A stretch of 19,650 nt of DNA, taken from NCBI GenBank assembly GCA_946886255.1, contig CAMPIG010000031.1:1-19650 (forward strand), written 5' to 3'. The stretch's first letter is position 1. Every line of letters starts with the position of its first letter. Source of the DNA: an uncultured Cellvibrio sp. GTDB lineage: Bacteria; Pseudomonadota; Gammaproteobacteria; Pseudomonadales; Cellvibrionaceae. Position numbers and translations under genes: made by a program. The notes under the pieces are model-generated. The model was not told the DNA's origin. It saw only the letters and a list, made by a program, of their open reading frames with translations, and did not search any database. Positions 11,245 to 19,474 of the stretch are shown one piece after another.

Positions 11245-14200
11245 ATGAAAAAACATCCACTTGCTATTCTATCTTCGCATTGTATCCATCCGCCGCGCCG
11301 TTCGGCTTTTGTTCGCACATGCTTCACGATGTGTATTATTTTATTAACGGGCTGCGGTGAAAAAACTGTCAGCACAGATCATAACGCGACACAAACCAGT
11401 AGTGCCGCCAGTAGTGTGTCGCTGGAGATCAAGCGCATTAGCGCACAAGACGCTCAAAAAACCGCCGCGACCATTGAGTCGCAAGTTGAGTTAACACTGG
11501 CGGAAGGCATTACCGGTGAACTCTGGGCCTCTGAAGAATTGATGGGTGATACGGTCGCCATTCACGTCGATGACAAAGGTCGTATTTGGGCTGGCATTAC
11601 CCAACGCAGTAATAACTCGGAATTTGATATTCGCCGTGCCCCTGACTGGGAACACACCTCGGTTGCCTTCAGGAATATTGAAGAGCGTCAGGCCTTTTTG
11701 AAAACAGAATTAGCGCCCGGAAAAAACTCACACAGCACATTAGTTCCAGACCGTAATAAAGATGGCAGCCACGACTGGCGCGATCTGGCAGTAATGACTG
11801 AAAAAGTGATTCGCCTGGAAGACACTGCCGGCAGCGGCAAAGCGGATTTTGTACAAACTGTGGTGGAAGATTTTAATACGGAAGTGACCGATGTTATCGG
11901 CGGTATGTTTTACAGCGACTTGTTGGACGAATTGTTTGTCAACATCGCTCCGGACTTCTGGCGTTTGAAAGACACCAACGGCGATGGTCAGATGGACGAA
12001 AAAGAATCGCTGGCGCACGGCTATGGTGTACACATTGGTTTTAGCGGTCACGGTATGTCAGGCGCTACCATGGGACCCGATGGAAAACTTTATTACAGCA
12101 TGGGAGACATAGGTACGGTGGTTACCGATGCCGATGGCAAAACCTGGAACTATCCCGATCAGGGCGTAATTGTGCGCAGCGAGCCGGATGGTGGCCACTT
12201 TGAAGTTTTTGCTGCCGGTCTGCGCAATATTTATGAGTTCTCATTCGATAAATACGGCAATTTTATCAGCGTTGACAACGACGGCGATCACGTCGGCGAA
12301 TACGAGCGTGTGGTGCATTTGATCGAAGGTTCCGACTCCGGCTGGCGTATTAACTGGCAGCTGGGTAAATATAAAGATCCAAAAAATAACAGCTATAAAC
12401 CCTGGATGGATGAAAACTATTACAAGCCGCGTTTTAAAAACCAGGCCGCGCATATTTTGCCTCCGGTTGCGCCCTACCACTCAGGCCCGACCGGTATGAC
12501 CTATAACCCCGGCGCCGCGTTTAACGATCAATGGAAAGATCATTTCTTTGTCGTGGAATTTGTTGGCTCCGCCGCGCGAGCCGGTATCAATGCCTTCACT
12601 CTCAAGCCCAAAGGTGCAAGTTTTGAGTTAGCAAGCGATCAAAATATTTTTCGTGGCGTACTAGCCACCGGCTTGGATTTCGGCCCGGACGGTGCCATGT
12701 ACATGAGCGACTGGATTGAAGGCTGGAACCTCAAACAAAAAGGCCGTATATGGAAGTTGGACACACCCGATACCGCCGGCAATGAAATCCGCAAAGAAAC
12801 CCAAGCCCTGCTTGCGGAAGATTTACACCAACGCAGCGGGGAAGATCTGGCCAAGCTACTAAGCCACGGGGATATGCGCGTGCGTCAGAAAGCGCAATTT
12901 GTGTTGGTCGATAAAGGCGAGCGCAGCCTGCTGGAGAACCAGGCACAAGCTGCCAGCGATGAATTTGCACGCATCCATGCGATTTGGGGCCTCGGTCAAT
13001 TATTGCGCAAAGATGCGAAGGTTGATTCAGTGCTTATTGCCCTGCTGAAAGATGCCAATAGTGAAATTCGTACACAAGCTGCAAAAGTCTTGGGTGACGC
13101 TAATCACGCGGCCGCAACGGATGCGTTATTACCGCTGCTAGGCGATAAAGATCCACGCGCGCAACTGTACGCAGCCCAAGCATTGGGCCGCATCGGCGCC
13201 ACATCCGCTATCGCACCCATAGTTAACATGCTTGCCATCAATAACGATGAAGATGTTTATTTGCGTCAGGCCGGTGCCATCGCGCTGGCACGTATCGGCG
13301 ACGATGTGGCCGTCGGTCGTTTGGCGACACATCCATCGGAAGCCGTACGTATTGCTGCGGTAGTTGCCTTAAAACAAATGACCAGCCCTGCCCTTGCCGT
13401 ATTCCTTAACGACACAAGCGAATACGTGGTTACCAACGCGGCGCGTGCTATTAGTGATGACACACTGGTCATCGAAGCGCTTCCCGTTTTGGCTGCCTAT
13501 CTGGATAAACCCGTATTTACCAACGAACCCCTATTACGCCGCGCCATCAATGCGAACGTCTATGCTAACAGTGAAGGTAGCGCTACCGCTGATAATGCCA
13601 AGCGTTTAGCTCGTTTTGCTGTACAGAAAAATATAGCCGGCGGAATACGAGCCGAGGCAGTTCACGCCTTGGCAAGCTGGGGTGAAACCTCGGTTTATGA
13701 TCGCGTAACGGGCGCTTATCGCGGTGCCATAAAGTACCCGGAAAGCGAGGCCATTGCCGCCCTGAGTGGCAGCTATAAAAATCTTTTGGAGGATAGCGAA
13801 GCGAATGTGCGTGAGGCAACAGTGCATACCATCGCCGATTTAAATGTACGCGACGTTAATGGTCAGCTGGCTGCAATGGTGACCAAAGATGCTGCCCCAC
13901 ATGTGCGCATTGCGGCGCTGCAAACGCTAGAAAAATTCGCGGTAGGAAACATCGGTGACCTGGTATTATCCGCCATAAAAGATAAAAACCAAAACGTACG
14001 GATGGCTGCACTGGCGTTGGTACCGGAACTGGCTCTACCTGCTCCACAAGTGGTCGAAATGCATAGTTTGCTACTCAAAACCGGCACTATTGGTGAACAG
14101 CAGGCCGCGCTCTTGTCGCTGGCAAATGTAAAAGGACCGGAAGCGATTGCTGTGTTTAAAGATCAACTGGAAAAATTGATCGCTGGCAAAATAGCACCGG

Positions 14201-14628
14201 AAGTGCAACTGGAATTAATCACCGCCGTGGAAAAAAATAATGTGCCGGAATTAACCGCGCTACTCGCCACTTACCAGAACAGCAAAGATAAAACCAAACC
14301 ATTGAACATGTTCCGGGAATCCTTATTCGGCGGCGACGCAGAAAAAGGCGGGAATATCTTCCGCTACAGCAATGCTGGACAGTGCGTCCGCTGCCATAAG
14401 GTAGGAAGCAGTGGGGCCGACGTCGGCCCAAACCTAACAACCATCGCCAAGACACTATCGCGTGAACAATTACTGGAAGCATTGGTAGATCCGGGTGCGC
14501 GCGTAGCGCCAGGCTTCGGGCCGGTATCCGGCATGCCACCGATGGGTATGTTGTTAAAACCGAATGAGATACGCGATGTGGTGGCCTACTTATCAACCCT
14601 CACGAAGGATGTACACCAAGGCCATTAA
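11245..14628 (+). CDS. Lipoprotein: dehydrogenase-type propeller, HEAT repeats, cytochrome c
   Basis: This 1127-residue protein has three parts. After a lipoprotein signal (lipobox LLTGC, Cys37) and a Ser/Thr spacer comes a beta-propeller of about 450 residues (90-530). Its motifs, such as GHGMSGATMGPDGKLYYSMGD, FAAGLRNIYEFSFDKYGN, DNDGDHVGEYERVVHL and GLDFGPDGAMYMSDW, match the 'putative membrane-bound dehydrogenase' type best known from Planctomycetes and Verrucomicrobia. Residues about 540-1000 are HEAT-like helical repeats (EIRTQAAKVLGD, RAQLYAAQALGRIGA, VYLRQAGAIALARIGD). The C-terminus is a class I cytochrome c with CVRCH (1047-1051) and candidate Met ligands in SGMPPMGM. It should sit in the periplasmic outer membrane leaflet or at the surface and pass electrons from a substrate oxidation. 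The substrate is unknown; neighbours suggest sugars. DNA is visibly continuous with no frameshift. Confidence 0.85.
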   Translation: MKKHPLAILSSHCIHPPRRSAFVRTCFTMCIILLTGCGEKTVSTDHNATQTSSAASSVSLEIKRISAQDAQKTAATIESQVELTLAEGITGELWASEELMGDTVAIHVDDKGRIWAGITQRSNNSEFDIRRAPDWEHTSVAFRNIEERQAFLKTELAPGKNSHSTLVPDRNKDGSHDWRDLAVMTEKVIRLEDTAGSGKADFVQTVVEDFNTEVTDVIGGMFYSDLLDELFVNIAPDFWRLKDTNGDGQMDEKESLAHGYGVHIGFSGHGMSGATMGPDGKLYYSMGDIGTVVTDADGKTWNYPDQGVIVRSEPDGGHFEVFAAGLRNIYEFSFDKYGNFISVDNDGDHVGEYERVVHLIEGSDSGWRINWQLGKYKDPKNNSYKPWMDENYYKPRFKNQAAHILPPVAPYHSGPTGMTYNPGAAFNDQWKDHFFVVEFVGSAARAGINAFTLKPKGASFELASDQNIFRGVLATGLDFGPDGAMYMSDWIEGWNLKQKGRIWKLDTPDTAGNEIRKETQALLAEDLHQRSGEDLAKLLSHGDMRVRQKAQFVLVDKGERSLLENQAQAASDEFARIHAIWGLGQLLRKDAKVDSVLIALLKDANSEIRTQAAKVLGDANHAAATDALLPLLGDKDPRAQLYAAQALGRIGATSAIAPIVNMLAINNDEDVYLRQAGAIALARIGDDVAVGRLATHPSEAVRIAAVVALKQMTSPALAVFLNDTSEYVVTNAARAISDDTLVIEALPVLAAYLDKPVFTNEPLLRRAINANVYANSEGSATADNAKRLARFAVQKNIAGGIRAEAVHALASWGETSVYDRVTGAYRGAIKYPESEAIAALSGSYKNLLEDSEANVREATVHTIADLNVRDVNGQLAAMVTKDAAPHVRIAALQTLEKFAVGNIGDLVLSAIKDKNQNVRMAALALVPELALPAPQVVEMHSLLLKTGTIGEQQAALLSLANVKGPEAIAVFKDQLEKLIAGKIAPEVQLELITAVEKNNVPELTALLATYQNSKDKTKPLNMFRESLFGGDAEKGGNIFRYSNAGQCVRCHKVGSSGADVGPNLTTIAKTLSREQLLEALVDPGARVAPGFGPVSGMPPMGMLLKPNEIRDVVAYLSTLTKDVHQGH

Positions 14629-14721: not shown

Positions 14722-14748
14722 AAACCCCACACGCTACGTGTGGGGTTT
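14722..14748 (-). terminator. Strong terminator between convergent genes
   Basis: A 12-bp stem (AAACCCCACACG at 14722-14733, complement at 14737-14748) closes a CTA loop. Read on the minus strand it is followed by TTTTTCCTTTTT, so it ends the GH74-DUF1080-MFS unit 48 nt past the MFS stop. On the plus strand only TTTGG follows, so termination of the haem lipoprotein transcript is likely weaker, though the hairpin could serve both. Confidence 0.88.
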
Positions 14749-14795: not shown

Positions 14796-16010
14796 TTAAT
14801 TGCGTGCAAATCGCTTGCGAATCAAGAACAGGAAACCAAATGCAAAAATCAGAAACATTGGAAAAAGCGCAAGGCTTTGCAGTGTTAACTGACCCGCTGT
14901 CAACTCTACGGCTTCGGCAGGAACACCGCTGGCGATAGCTTCAACTTTCGCATCATCCAACCAACCGCCGATAACCGGGTTCCACATACTCATAGAGAAC
15001 ATACCGGCACCTCCCAATAAGGACATACCCAACGCCCCGGTCCTGGGTTGATACTCGCTGATAAACCCGATCATAGTTGGCCAGAAGTAAGTCACACCCA
15101 GCGCAAAAACCATAGCGGCAATATAAATCATATCGCCTGATGCGTTGCTCAACAGAAAGATACCAATGGTTGTGACAATGGAAGACATCAATAACACACC
15201 CACTGGATTAAGCGCTTCTACAATCGGGCCGGCAAAAAAACGACCCAATGCCATTAACCCGGTCACCAGTGCCAGCACTAGCATCGGGTGGGCGCCAGAT
15301 GCGCCAAAAATGCGGTCAACCCATTGCTGGGTGCCAAACTCGGACGCAGCGGTTACTGTCATACAGAAGAACATAAAGATAAACAATGGGGAGAACAACG
15401 CTTTGATATTGGTTTTGGTGGAAGTTTCCGAATTCGCCATGTTCGGGAAAGGCTGACCGAAAATCATCATTCCGTAAATAATTGTCGGGATAATCATGAT
15501 TGCAATTTGCCAATGCCAATCCAGTCCCAATTTGGTCATCACGCTGGACACCAATGCACCAATCACAATGCCACCCGGAAACCAAACGTGGAATTTATTG
15601 AGCATGGCCGTTTTGCGGGTGTGATAAATATCCGTGATCAATGGATTACACGCCGCTTCAACCGAACCATTAGCGAAGCCGATTAAAAAGCTCGACAACA
15701 ATAACGACCAAAACCCGGTTGCGGAAATGGTCAGGATCAAACCGAGCAGATGGCAGACAAACGCCATATACATCAGCGTGCGCGCACCCACATGATTGTA
15801 AATCAAGCCACCAAACATCATTGCCACCGGAAAACCGAGGAAGGCCATACCGTTAATCCACCCTAACTGGGTGTTGTTAAAATCAAAATCGGCACTCAGC
15901 TGGGTGAGGATACCGGCGCGAATCGCAAAGGTCATTGCCGTCACAATCAGTGCGACGCAGCAAGCAATAAACAGTCGCTGCGGATTAATGGTTGCGGGGG
16001 ATCCGTTCAT
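14796..16010 (-). CDS. MFS sugar transporter, FucP/glucose-type
   Basis: This 404-residue major facilitator has about twelve hydrophobic segments in two halves, with a central cytoplasmic loop near 187-205 (NMANSETSTKTNIKAL). Visible features are GWINGMAFLGFPVAMMFGGLIYNHVGARTLM (49-80), the loop-2/3 signature region of MFS; GFANGSVEAACNPLITDIY (111-129), which in sugar/H+ symporters of the FucP type carries the family's acidic and asparagine residues; and FHVWFPGGIVIGAL. It probably imports a sugar or oligosaccharide by proton symport, but the substrate is not readable from sequence. A start at 16010 is preceded by AAAGG about 12 nt upstream, a weak site. It follows DUF1080 by 112 nt on the same strand with a hairpin in between, and is the last gene before the terminator. 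Confidence 0.88.
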   Translation of the reverse strand: MNGSPATINPQRLFIACCVALIVTAMTFAIRAGILTQLSADFDFNNTQLGWINGMAFLGFPVAMMFGGLIYNHVGARTLMYMAFVCHLLGLILTISATGFWSLLLSSFLIGFANGSVEAACNPLITDIYHTRKTAMLNKFHVWFPGGIVIGALVSSVMTKLGLDWHWQIAIMIIPTIIYGMMIFGQPFPNMANSETSTKTNIKALFSPLFIFMFFCMTVTAASEFGTQQWVDRIFGASGAHPMLVLALVTGLMALGRFFAGPIVEALNPVGVLLMSSIVTTIGIFLLSNASGDMIYIAAMVFALGVTYFWPTMIGFISEYQPRTGALGMSLLGGAGMFSMSMWNPVIGGWLDDAKVEAIASGVPAEAVELTAGQLTLQSLALFPMFLIFAFGFLFLIRKRFARN

Positions 16011-16065
16011 AAAATCTATACCTTTTTATTGTTGCTTGGCTTGGTGTCGTTGGTTGTTGTCAGAC

Positions 16066-16092
16066 AAAAACTACCGGGCAGATATCCCGGCA
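16066..16092 (-). terminator. Attenuator-like hairpin between DUF1080 and MFS
   Basis: Read on the minus strand, TGCCGGG, a seven-base loop and CCCGGTA form a 7-bp stem (16092-16072, one G-T pair), followed within 1 nt by TTTTT (16070-16066). It lies 30 nt after the DUF1080 stop and 60 nt before the MFS start. It could end part of the transcripts and lower MFS expression relative to GH74 and DUF1080. Confidence 0.6.
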
Positions 16093-16122
16093 GTTCATAA
16101 ACAGGGAATTGAAAACCAGTGA

Positions 16123-16983
16123 TCAGTACTCACAAACTTCTTGTTTATTTTTTACAAAATAATTTTTGAAGTTTTTCGCCGTTTTATCCATGCAACCTTC
16201 CAAATTTAATAAAGTCACGCGGCGAAAATCCGTTGGATGGCTCTCTGCTTGCAGAGCGATATAGCCGCCGCTATTGGGCGTTCGGTCGTCCCATTGCAAA
16301 TGGGTATATTCAAGGACTTTTTTTCCATTAATAATGTGCGCAGCTTTTTCGCTGCCATATACCACCAGCTCAGCAGTTACCCACTGGTCACCATGATAGG
16401 TATCGCTGTTAGAATTAATAACGTGATCTTCAGTAAACTTTCCGTTGAACACTACATGGGTTGCAGGTGTGCAAAGATTGCCGGTAGAGCGCGAATTTAC
16501 GCCATCACCACCTAACAATTGATACTCTATGCTACCGGGGAAGTCTTGTTTGAGTTCCATGGATTTAGGGTCTTGAGTGTGATACATAATACCGTTATTG
16601 CGGTAAGCCCACCCAGGCCCACCTTTCACCTGATCACCTACAAAACGGTACTCTACTTTCAAACGGTAGTGGGAATACGGCCCACCGTTGTAGAAGATGT
16701 GACCAAAGTGACCATTGAAGTCCTCGTATTGGTCGTAACGCATCTTCATCATGCCGTCTTCAACACGAAAGGTATTAAAAGCATTGTTATTCAACTCAAA
16801 ACCGCTGATTTTAATGCTCCAGTTATTTAGATCCTTACCGTTAAAGAGTTCAACCCATTCTTCTTTGTCAGGATCTTTTACTGCTTTCTTTTCATCGGTT
16901 ACCGTTACTGCCAATACCAACATTGACATAGTACAAAAAAATACTGCCATGATGGTTTTCTGTTTGATACTCGTGTGATTCAT
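16123..16983 (-). CDS. Secreted DUF1080 protein (3-keto-disaccharide hydrolase family)
   Basis: This 286-residue protein has an N-terminal signal (hydrophobic run 11-27) and one DUF1080/PF06439 domain, a jelly-roll fold now linked to cleavage of 3-keto-glycosides. Family markers: EEWVELFNGKDLNNW (41-55), the core GHIFYNGGPYSHYRLKVEYRF (94-114), YRNNGIMYHTQDP (127-139), FPGSIEYQLLGGDG (148-161), the Cys171 region, and GGYIALQAESHPTDFRRVTLLNLEGCMD (239-266). It ends with the short tail GCMDKTAKNF...VCEY, a motif common in Bacteroidetes secreted proteins. The signal lacks a lipobox, so it is periplasmic or secreted. The gene follows GH74 by 61 nt on the same strand and precedes the MFS gene. This supports a role on oxidised oligosaccharides or trehalose-like disaccharides; no matching GFO/IDH-type or GMC 3-dehydrogenase is in the window. 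Confidence 0.9.
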   Translation of the reverse strand: MNHTSIKQKTIMAVFFCTMSMLVLAVTVTDEKKAVKDPDKEEWVELFNGKDLNNWSIKISGFELNNNAFNTFRVEDGMMKMRYDQYEDFNGHFGHIFYNGGPYSHYRLKVEYRFVGDQVKGGPGWAYRNNGIMYHTQDPKSMELKQDFPGSIEYQLLGGDGVNSRSTGNLCTPATHVVFNGKFTEDHVINSNSDTYHGDQWVTAELVVYGSEKAAHIINGKKVLEYTHLQWDDRTPNSGGYIALQAESHPTDFRRVTLLNLEGCMDKTAKNFKNYFVKNKQEVCEY

Positions 16984-17044
16984 TACCTATTCTCTTTCTG
17001 ATCTATTAAATTTTTTGCGCTTATTACCAGGCGAGGCCAACCAT

Positions 17045-19474
17045 TTATCTTGAGTAATTTCTCCTGTTCAGGATGAGACCAGAAATTAACATGGAAAACA
17101 AAGACAGCAATAGAAAAATACCGACACCACCGCCACCGCCCTGACCGTTGGGCCTTGATGAAGAGCTGGAAGAATTAGTACTCATAGCACTTGATGATAA
17201 ACTTGAAGAGCTAACAGCGGCAGTACTCGACAAGGAGCTTGAAGAGCTGACACCGCTAATGCTTGATGAAGAATTGGAAATATCCCCTGTACCTAAATCT
17301 GTCAGTTTTCCATATACGATACCTCTTCCGGCAGTGCTCATATATACCGTGCCAAAGGTATTCATATCACCTATTATAAAATTACCATTTCCAGGGCCGC
17401 CATACTGATGTGCAGCATCATTTATTTTTACCCACGTGTTTCCTCTATCAATAGACCGAAAAATTCCCGTGTCGTTATTGACCGCTCCCCAAATATAAAT
17501 TGCCGGGAAGTCAGCACCATCTGCTGCTTTACCAAACCCAACAGCACTAGCATAAGTCACTCCAGAAACTAGTGCGAAGTTTTCACCAGAATCTGAAGAA
17601 TACGCCAAACCATTATTATAAAGCGGCACCCACACACCGCCTTCTATGCCTGGAACAGCTCTAATCAGTTTGGAATCATTTGAGCTTGGTAGTGTACCTA
17701 TCTGATTAAATGAAGCGCCTGAATCAAGGCTAACCATCATTTTGTTACCATTAAGAGCATACAGTTTATTACTGTTAACCGTATCAGCCACCACCCTTGC
17801 CCCGGGCATTGATAACCCTTCAATCTCTGACCAGGTTACACCCCAGTCTGTCGTATAAAAACTTGATCGTAATTCCTCTCGATCTGTGGTGGATCGGGGA
17901 CTGTAGATCAACGTTCTACCATCGGCTGTGAGCGTACTGTAACCATAAATTCCATTATCAAAATTAATCTTCTTCCATGTTTTTGCAGTATCAGTTGAAT
18001 AGTACAAAGATGAACCTACTCGAACCATAAGGCGGGGGTCACGATAAGCAAAGGATATACTCGTTTCTGTACCCATTCTTGGGGTATGGATAGGGCTATA
18101 CTGAGCTGCATTTTCGTGAACAAATCCATCATAATCACCGATCACCGAAACCAATGGGCCACCCGGAATACTCACCAAATCCAAAGGAACCGTTTCTTCA
18201 ATTCCAGCTACCCAAAATGACCACACCACCGGTGAGGCATCAATATCCTGTGCTTTAAAAATTCCGTTACCCGAAGTCACATAGATATTTTTGGTATTGA
18301 AGGGATCGAATTCCACTGAACCAGCCCAATGAATAGAGTTACCATCAATCCAATCGATACCTTGTGTATCCAGAACAAATCCACCGTCCATAACATTGAT
18401 CCAATTTTTTCCACCATCACGACTTGAAAAAATCTGATCACCCCAAGCATTGCCCGAAGCATTACTATATTGAAACTGATATGTGTTACAACTCGATATA
18501 ATTATGCGATCCGCGTCATTAGGGTCGACCGTTATTCCTCCAAACGCATTGGAAAATCCTGCTGGGGTAATATTCGTCCACTGTTTAGTAGCGGGAGAAT
18601 ATTTCCAAACCTGTCCCTTAGTCATGGGTTCTGGTTCGGTCCAATGAGCATGTGGCCCTGCACCATTTGCATAGGTAATCAATAGATCACCCCGCTTGTC
18701 GAACACCGCTCGTTGTGGCATCAGATCAGAAGGCCCACCACTGATTGCGGCAAAGGTTTTTCCGGCATCATCAGAGTAGTAAAAGTTGGCGCCGACCGAA
18801 GGAAAGCGAGAAACCCCTACGAAAATATTTTTTGCCGCTTCGCCTATTCCATTTGAAGGGTCTAGTGCTATAAAACTGATGCCAGTTTCATTCGGGGTAG
18901 TTGTAATATCCAGGCCGTTCAGTCTTGACCAGGTGGCTCCAGCATCTGTTGATTGAAATAAGCCATTCCAGCGAGTGCCTGCGTACAGAATGCTACTATT
19001 AAGAGGATCAACAACTAATTTTTCGCCTGTTTGTCTTCCCATGCCGTTGCCATGTGCTTTAAATTGATTCGACACATCAAAAATAGTGAACGTATTACCA
19101 TAGTCACTCGACTTTAATATTGCTGTTTTACCACCATTAAAATAGGAGATCCCCACCAACATATACAGTACTGATGAGTCTTTTGGGTCCAATGCAATGG
19201 ATTCTACCCCAAGGAAACTTACCTGATCTTGAGATACCCAATCAGTCAGCGCAATCCAGCGGGCCTTTTGATTATCCCACCGATATGCACCACCAACATC
19301 TGTGCGGGCATAAAATAAATTTTGCTCCGTTCTACTGGGTATAACAGCACTGACAAACCCACCGCCCCCCACTGCAACGGTATCCCAATAATAGTTATCA
19401 GCTTGGGCACAGAAACTAAAGCCATAAAGTGCAACAAAAGGCAACGCAGCAAAAATTCGCTTGAGTATTTCCAT
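17045..19474 (-). CDS. GH74 xyloglucanase with Ser-rich linker and GlyGly-CTERM tail
   Basis: This 809-residue enzyme has a signal peptide (cleavage after AQA, about residue 25) and a full GH74 tandem-propeller domain (about 27-728). Family motifs are VAVGGGGFVSAVIPS, YARTDVGGAYRW with catalytic Asp59, many 'DAGKTF/DGGKNW' Asp-box turns, and VIGDYDGFVH with Asp447 as the probable acid. It should cut xyloglucan beta-1,4-glucan backbones by endo action. No carbohydrate-binding module follows. Instead a poly-Ser linker (about 733-773) leads to a Gly-rich stretch, a hydrophobic segment (about 784-802) and the basic end NRRNYSR, a GlyGly-CTERM type signal for rhombosortase-linked secretion. No SD stronger than a short AGG-type run precedes the ATG at 19474. 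It is first in an operon with DUF1080 and MFS. Confidence 0.93.
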   Translation of the reverse strand: MEILKRIFAALPFVALYGFSFCAQADNYYWDTVAVGGGGFVSAVIPSRTEQNLFYARTDVGGAYRWDNQKARWIALTDWVSQDQVSFLGVESIALDPKDSSVLYMLVGISYFNGGKTAILKSSDYGNTFTIFDVSNQFKAHGNGMGRQTGEKLVVDPLNSSILYAGTRWNGLFQSTDAGATWSRLNGLDITTTPNETGISFIALDPSNGIGEAAKNIFVGVSRFPSVGANFYYSDDAGKTFAAISGGPSDLMPQRAVFDKRGDLLITYANGAGPHAHWTEPEPMTKGQVWKYSPATKQWTNITPAGFSNAFGGITVDPNDADRIIISSCNTYQFQYSNASGNAWGDQIFSSRDGGKNWINVMDGGFVLDTQGIDWIDGNSIHWAGSVEFDPFNTKNIYVTSGNGIFKAQDIDASPVVWSFWVAGIEETVPLDLVSIPGGPLVSVIGDYDGFVHENAAQYSPIHTPRMGTETSISFAYRDPRLMVRVGSSLYYSTDTAKTWKKINFDNGIYGYSTLTADGRTLIYSPRSTTDREELRSSFYTTDWGVTWSEIEGLSMPGARVVADTVNSNKLYALNGNKMMVSLDSGASFNQIGTLPSSNDSKLIRAVPGIEGGVWVPLYNNGLAYSSDSGENFALVSGVTYASAVGFGKAADGADFPAIYIWGAVNNDTGIFRSIDRGNTWVKINDAAHQYGGPGNGNFIIGDMNTFGTVYMSTAGRGIVYGKLTDLGTGDISNSSSSISGVSSSSSLSSTAAVSSSSLSSSAMSTNSSSSSSRPNGQGGGGGVGIFLLLSLFSMLISGLILNRRNYSR
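17154..17285. repeat. 36-bp tandem repeats encoding the poly-Ser linker
   Basis: Three full 36-base units (17154-17189, 17190-17225, 17226-17261) and a fourth partial one (17262-17285) are imperfect copies starting CTTGATGAAGAGCTGG. On the minus strand they encode 12-residue serine-rich blocks of the GH74 linker. The number of copies sets the linker length and could vary between strains. Confidence 0.75.

What the first reader, a model, noticed from the sequence alone, without database searches (positions are those of the whole stretch)
14796..19474. GH74 xyloglucanase in an apparent operon with DUF1080 and an MFS importer
GH74, a DUF1080 (3-keto-disaccharide hydrolase family) protein and a sugar transporter sit in order on one strand with 61- and 112-nt gaps and one closing terminator. 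Xyloglucan loci usually pair GH74 with GH31, GH35 or GH95 exo-enzymes and a TonB-dependent receptor; a 3-keto-type enzyme in this place suggests an oxidation/elimination route for xyloglucan oligosaccharides. Family assignments and order are seen; the pathway is inference.
Basis: partly seen in the sequence, partly recalled or inferred. Interest (0 to 1): 0.72.

Follow-up and report, generated by a model that had tools for sequence, protein, structure and literature searches.

The report
Portable 3-keto-sugar module beside a xyloglucanase
In a Cellvibrio-like bacterium, a plant-polysaccharide-cutting enzyme sits next to a gene thought to cleave oxidised sugars, but in relatives the second gene mostly keeps company with a neighbouring sugar-dehydrogenase-like cytochrome, so its place beside the polysaccharide enzyme is probably a recent, local arrangement.

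Summary
The three genes are real: GH74 endo-xyloglucanase, DUF1080/PF06439 protein, MFS importer. "One closing terminator" is doubtful: a second terminator-like hairpin lies between DUF1080 and MFS. GH74-DUF1080 adjacency was not seen again: 0 of 10 other genomes carrying both, among 144 searched, and 0 of 80 DUF1080 loci. Co-presence is near chance (10 against 6.7 expected, p 0.14).

The partner that recurs is the convergent gene 11245-14628 (+), 'CytHEAT': a lipoprotein-like protein with a propeller of PQQ-sugar-dehydrogenase fold, HEAT repeats and cytochrome c. It is in 28 of 31 DUF1080 genomes, within 5 kb in 15 of 26 pairs; a similar gene sits directly upstream of DUF1080 in five Runella loci. 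The MFS gene's home in relatives is a TIM barrel-Gfo/Idh/MocA-MFS operon. Best reading: a portable periplasmic oxidise-cleave-import module for 3-keto sugars, joined to GH74 recently. Substrate and oxidase role are inferred. Against: PqqC was found in none of the 30 CytHEAT genomes. New variant of a known kind; moderate interest.

The parts
17045..19474 (-). GH74 endo-xyloglucanase; signal-peptide-like start, Ser-rich linker and glycine-rich plus hydrophobic C-terminal tail (by eye)
   Evidence: with about 160 nt upstream it matches GH74 of G031 (70.8% of 2360 nt), where a GH62-like gene follows, not DUF1080
16123..16983 (-). DUF1080 / 3-keto-disaccharide hydrolase family (PF06439) protein; signal-peptide-like N-terminus (by eye)
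   Evidence: modelled beta-sandwich (pLDDT 71), Foldseek rank 3 is 3hbk, a solved DUF1080 protein
16068..16096 (-). 11-bp terminator-like hairpin with U-run between DUF1080 and MFS; part of the MFS leader
   Evidence: seen before MFS at its home locus in G031, in none of the other 4 home loci viewed, degraded in G001:C141
14796..16010 (-). MFS importer, 91-93% identical in 6 genomes to an importer whose home (read in G031, G002, G005) is a TIM barrel - Gfo/Idh/MocA - MFS gene run
   Evidence: about 85 nt of leader (16011-16095) match the G031 home locus too
14722..14748 (-). 12-bp terminator-like hairpin after MFS
11245..14628 (+). 'CytHEAT': lipoprotein-like start, DUF7133/TIGR02604 propeller of PQQ sugar dehydrogenase fold, HEAT repeats, C-terminal cytochrome c (CxxCH); convergent recurrent partner of DUF1080

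Best explanation
The window carries a portable set of three genes for sugars oxidised at C3, set down next to a GH74 gene. Proposed working: (1) CytHEAT, a periplasm-facing lipoprotein, oxidises a glycoside with its propeller domain and passes the electrons to its own cytochrome c and on to respiration (inferred from fold, residues and architecture). (2) The exported DUF1080 protein splits the 3-keto-glycoside by hydrolysis or elimination (inferred from family precedent). (3) The MFS protein takes the freed keto-sugar across the inner membrane (inferred). (4) In the cytosol a xylose-isomerase-like TIM barrel and a Gfo/Idh/MocA reductase, encoded beside the MFS gene's home copy in relatives, return it to an ordinary hexose (inferred). 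GH74 is a recent neighbour that may feed the module with oligosaccharides but is not part of its recurrent core (shown as to gene order, inferred as to function).
Confidence: 0.5

Rival explanations
1. One reading: a dedicated oxidation/elimination route for xyloglucan oligosaccharides, with GH74, DUF1080 and MFS as one co-regulated unit.
For: 61-nt gap without structure between GH74 and DUF1080; G031 carries a GH5/TonB-receptor/GH97/GH29/GH74 cluster between DUF1080 and CytHEAT; GH74-like genes flank the module in G001:C141.
Against: Adjacency not seen in any other genome examined; co-presence near chance; 21 of 31 DUF1080 genomes without a GH74 match at E 1e-20; hairpin before MFS; no blastn match upstream of DUF1080 to the five relative loci compared.
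Confidence: 0.15
2. The DUF1080/CytHEAT convergence point is merely a permissive insertion site, and the two genes have no joint metabolic role; the window is a chance collage.
For: In Cellvibrio the interval holds very different cargo (pectate lyase, GH cluster, GMC gene, MFS) and ranges from 0.3 to 60 kb; convergent genes can stay together by inertia.
Against: Same pairing on one strand in Runella, G015 and G064; two separate pairs in G001 that part company in both trees alike; DUF1080, MFS and CytHEAT sit together in window and G001:C141 outside the flanks shared by G031, G033, G028 and G038, though in G001:C141 two other genes intervene.
Confidence: 0.2
3. CytHEAT is not the C3 oxidase: it is a glycosidase like Lac161_ORF7 or a redox partner (for instance of LPMOs), and another dehydrogenase supplies the 3-keto substrate.
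For: Lac161_ORF7 report; a GMC gene beside DUF1080 in L002 and GMC plus Gluconate_2-dh3 genes in L072; no PqqC. Most other neighbours were not scanned, so more such genes may exist.
Against: Fold and aligned residues resemble sugar dehydrogenases; no GMC gene among the ten window proteins scanned.
Confidence: 0.2

Closest known systems
Caulobacter crescentus LacABC + CCNA_01705 (putative 3'-ketolactose hydrolase, DUF1080); PMC9007349, passages
   Same: Exported DUF1080 protein near a respiratory sugar dehydrogenase, transporter and sugar reductase/epimerase genes
   Different: No LacABC-type genes among the window proteins scanned; a propeller-HEAT-cytochrome c protein stands in that place
Bacteroides BT2157 (3-ketotrehalose hydrolase), named in PMC9007349; NCBIfam BT_2158/BT_2159 families, seen as sub-threshold hits
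   Same: DUF1080 cleavage of a 3-keto glycoside; Gfo/Idh/MocA and TIM-barrel partners (partners recalled)
   Different: Oxidation there by NAD-type Gfo/Idh/MocA enzymes (recalled); here a cytochrome-linked candidate
Lac161_ORF7 (Verrucomicrobia metagenome, AGW45552), PMC5342196, section 15 and passages
   Same: TIGR02604 + HEAT_2 + Cytochrom_C architecture; acts on a disaccharide
   Different: Reported as beta-galactosidase; no DUF1080 in the passages read
PQQ-dependent sugar dehydrogenases: soluble GDH (1cq1), aldose dehydrogenases (3a9g, 2ism), fungal AA12 pyranose dehydrogenase (6jt5)
   Different: Long HEAT region and own cytochrome c; no PqqC found in the hosts
Levoglucosan pathway LgdA-B1-B2-C, PMC7676230, passages
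   Same: Sugar-isomerase-type and Gfo/Idh/MocA enzymes turn a 3-keto sugar into glucose, as proposed for the MFS home locus
   Different: No DUF1080 among the four enzymes named
C. japonicus xyloglucan locus (Xyl31A-Bgl35A-TBDR-Afc95A), PMC4285296, passages
   Same: Same genus, same polymer as GH74
   Different: Holds no endo-xyloglucanase; DUF1080 not among the genes named in the passages

Membership tests
GH74 xyloglucanase | Whole-domain similarity to solved GH74 enzymes | tested here: met
   6p2l E 1.1e-182 and 2cn2 E 2.6e-109, residues about 27-723 covered
GH74 xyloglucanase | Two catalytic aspartates (roles recalled) | tested here: met
   TDVGGAYRWD and GD segments keep Asp in the alignment to 6p2l
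3-keto-disaccharide hydrolase PF06439 | Score over the Pfam cut-off | tested here: met
   119 bits against 26.8
3-keto-disaccharide hydrolase PF06439 | Cleavage of a 3-keto glycoside | not testable with these tools
   needs an assay
LacABC-DUF1080 lactose pathway | GMC (LacA) plus Gluconate_2-dh3-type subunit beside DUF1080 | tested here: not met
   none among the ten window proteins scanned; seen instead in L072
PVC-type heme-binding protein TIGR02604 | Score over the NCBIfam cut-off and CxxCH motif | tested here: met
   123.8 against 122.2 bits; C1047, C1050, H1051 invariant in 29 rows; the companion model TIGR02603 stays below its cut-off, 59.3 against 68.15
PQQ-dependent sugar dehydrogenase | Propeller fold | tested here: met
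PQQ-dependent sugar dehydrogenase | PQQ-site residues (His, Arg-Asn, Arg, Lys; roles recalled) | tested here: inconclusive
   H269, R327, N328 align to four assumed relatives and are invariant; a lysine equivalent is not evident and R470 is loosely placed
PQQ-dependent sugar dehydrogenase | PQQ made by the host | tested here: not met
   PqqC in 0 of 30 CytHEAT genomes; not strictly required if PQQ is scavenged; the window's own genome is not held
Xyloglucan utilisation locus | GH31, GH35/GH95 exo-enzymes and TonB receptor | tested here: not met
   absent among the ten window proteins scanned; the window stops 176 nt upstream of GH74
Three-gene operon | Single transcript with one terminator | tested here: inconclusive
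   extra terminator-like hairpin before MFS, which in G031 stands inside another operon; transcripts not testable here

The most novel reading that the evidence does not exclude
The propeller-HEAT-cytochrome c proteins (TIGR02604/DUF7133) are a new class of periplasmic, cytochrome-linked glycoside 3-dehydrogenases that work as a pair with DUF1080 enzymes. This would give the 3-keto-glycoside pathway an NAD-free, respiratory entry step in Cellvibrionaceae and Runella, could help explain why DUF1080 is so numerous in Planctomycetes (PMC5673643, passages), and would recast the lactose activity of Lac161_ORF7.
Probability: 0.3. Interest if true: 0.75.

Novelty: new variant of a known kind. Interest (0 to 1): 0.48.

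Why it matters
3-keto-glycoside cleavage is an alternative to classical glycoside hydrolysis, and its oxidising step is known for few lineages. A recurrent, portable DUF1080-cytochrome pair would name a candidate oxidase for many bacteria and give a function to a large family of multi-domain haem proteins. It also warns against reading pathway meaning into one tight gene order: the GH74 link here did not recur.

Tried and rejected
Rejected: GH74-DUF1080 as a conserved pair. One search was empty for all 36 genomes and had no positive control of its own; the same query rings in 31 of 144 family genomes. In some searches only the best candidates of the first look were scored in some genomes, so extra copies may be missed.

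Led nowhere: phmmer of the propeller alone against solved structures, no match. Class-level search with TIGR02604 gave 89 of 274 genomes, none over the cut-off, mostly short frames, and PF06439 was over its cut-off in 13 of 274, so no class-wide co-occurrence test was possible. NCBIfam gave no name for DUF1080 or for the 438- and 203-aa genes of L002. The consensus promoter scan found no more sites than shuffles (15 against 16.4). PMC10628242 holds none of the terms sought.

Choices and dropped rows: one search used 56 of the 81 co-directional neighbour genes (near-duplicates and some short genes left out by hand), and one search found no clustered DUF1080 gene in 5 of 80 loci. The pair table leaves out G003, G013 and G017, whose best copies lie on different contigs; in G013 a second, stop-bearing DUF1080 copy lies 19.6 kb from a CytHEAT gene on the same strand. 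Where a genome has several DUF1080 copies the one nearer CytHEAT was used. Alignment A2 used 28 of the 120 listed homologues plus the window.

Recalled, from no call: roles of PQQ-site and GH74 catalytic residues; NAD use by BT2158/BT2159; PQQ scavenging by other bacteria; HHIP as a non-enzyme; LPMO electron donors as a rival role.

Change made on re-checking: confidence of the best explanation went from 0.52 to 0.50, because the trees disagree in places and the comparison proteins are only assumed dehydrogenases.
Full report
What is there. The three ORFs exist at the stated coordinates. 17045-19474(-) is a GH74 enzyme (6p2l, E 1.1e-182). 16123-16983(-) belongs to PF06439 (119 bits); its model is a beta-sandwich of middling confidence (pLDDT 71) with the solved DUF1080 protein 3hbk at rank 3 of a Foldseek list otherwise full of galectins and other beta-sandwiches. 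14796-16010(-) is an MFS protein. The organism is close to Cellvibrio: the nearest named DUF1080 loci are Cellvibrio sp.. Gaps are 61 and 112 nt. A 12-bp terminator-like stem follows MFS. An 11-bp hairpin with a U-run also follows DUF1080 (0 of 200 shuffles as good in a 46-nt piece, 7 of 200 in a 92-nt piece), so 'one closing terminator' is doubtful.

The GH74 link does not recur. In 80 DUF1080 loci from named genomes, many of them cut short by contig ends, a GH74 relative within the fetched flanks showed up in 1, at 29-41% identity (L001). In 144 genomes of the family, DUF1080 was in 31 and GH74 in 31, both in 10, against 6.7 expected (p 0.14). In none of the 10 are they seen adjacent (4 of the 10 have them on different contigs); the closest are G031 (15 kb) and a 33% GH74-like gene in G001 (7.6 kb). 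GH74 was in 0 of 36 DUF1080 genomes outside the family, with no control in that call. At its other places the GH74 orthologue is followed by a GH62-like gene (G031, G001:C148); in G031 about 160 nt of its upstream DNA match the window.

The link that does recur. CytHEAT, the convergent gene at 11245-14628(+), occurs in 30 of 144 genomes, 28 of them among the 31 with DUF1080 (Fisher 3e-24 without correction for kinship). Of 26 same-contig pairs in 25 genomes, 10 lie within 1 kb, 15 within 5 kb, 19 within 15 kb and 24 within 70 kb; two (G062, G063) are about 0.9 Mb apart. Of the 24, 20 are convergent; G015 and G064 have both on one strand close together, G004 and G006 on one strand 50-60 kb apart. 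G001 has two pairs: in both trees one pair falls with the window, G031 and G033 (100/100) and the other outside; the CytHEAT tree puts that other pair with G002, G028 and G003, the DUF1080 tree leaves it unresolved. The trees disagree on G038 and on the G004/G005/G006 group. In 11 cases the two protein searches list the same longest-contig length, which suggests shared contigs; this is inference from length alone. In Bacteroidota, the 5 Runella loci of the 80 have a CytHEAT-like gene directly upstream of DUF1080, with DUF7133, HEAT and cytochrome c domains shown for L053. Over the 62 loci outside the family such a gene was near in 6. In G002 a 1084-aa frame combines a sub-threshold DUF1080 stretch (20.9 against 26.8 bits) with DUF7133, just downstream of another DUF1080 gene.

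A collage of home loci. In G031, G033, G028 and G038 the DUF1080 and CytHEAT genes sit between shared outer neighbours, with different cargo between them: in G031 GH5, TonB receptor, tryptophan-halogenase-like, GH97, AraC, GH29, GH74, GH62-like genes and a pectate lyase; in G033 a relative of that pectate lyase. The window and G001:C141 lack those outer neighbours and share the DUF1080-MFS junction (80.8% over 1534 nt); in G001:C141 two more genes stand before CytHEAT. The MFS, with about 85 nt of leader and its hairpin, matches its home locus in G031. Home loci read in G031 and G002 run TIM barrel, Gfo/Idh/MocA, MFS; in G005 one more gene intervenes (domains shown for G031). The TIM gene is in 71 of 144 genomes and in 30 of 31 with DUF1080. 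So three genes of separate homes have met in the window. The order of these events is inference.

Mechanism. Inferred from family precedent (PMC9007349 passages; PMC7676230 passages): periplasmic oxidation by CytHEAT, cleavage by DUF1080, import by MFS, cytosolic rearrangement and reduction by TIM barrel and Gfo/Idh/MocA. Nothing here shows the substrate or the carbon oxidised. GMC oxidoreductases near DUF1080 in L002 and L072 keep open that another enzyme does the oxidation.

Literature. DUF1080 or '3-keto-disaccharide hydrolase' occurs in 6 papers of the library; I read passages of two (PMC9007349; PMC5673643) and did not open the other four. The 15 papers listed for Cellvibrio, xyloglucan and DUF1080 terms hold no DUF1080. 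I saw no paper in the listings that pairs DUF1080 with this cytochrome type or with GH74; most listed papers were not opened, and papers outside the open-licence library were not searched.

Verdict. Genes confirmed; operon partly; a xyloglucan-specific 3-keto route is not supported; the recurrent DUF1080-cytochrome pair is the better finding.

Noticed in passing
   Followed up: partly
window 17048-17140 (-): GH74 ends in a Ser-rich linker, a glycine run and a hydrophobic stretch with a basic tail, like a GlyGly-CTERM sorting signal (family name recalled; no such NCBIfam hit).
   Followed up: no
L001 10988-12082: The MFS copy beside DUF1080 in G001:C141 lacks about 40 residues (query 217-256) present in the copy on G001:C22; possibly decaying or an assembly error.
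   Followed up: no
L002 9417-12825: CytHEAT is split over two frames in this metagenome-derived genome, beside a GMC oxidoreductase gene.
   Followed up: no
L105 16120-19158: Two tryptophan-halogenase-like genes (one scanned, the other by clustering) follow a TonB receptor inside the G031 polysaccharide cluster.
   Followed up: no
L072 13314-18247: A second DUF1080, two GMC genes and a Gluconate_2-dh3 gene form a LacA/LacC-like cluster near the DUF1080 relative in a Lysobacterales genome.
   Followed up: partly
L140 3212-7362: In G002 a DUF1080 gene, a frame with a DUF1080-like stretch plus DUF7133 propeller, and a TonB receptor gene run on one strand.
   Followed up: partly
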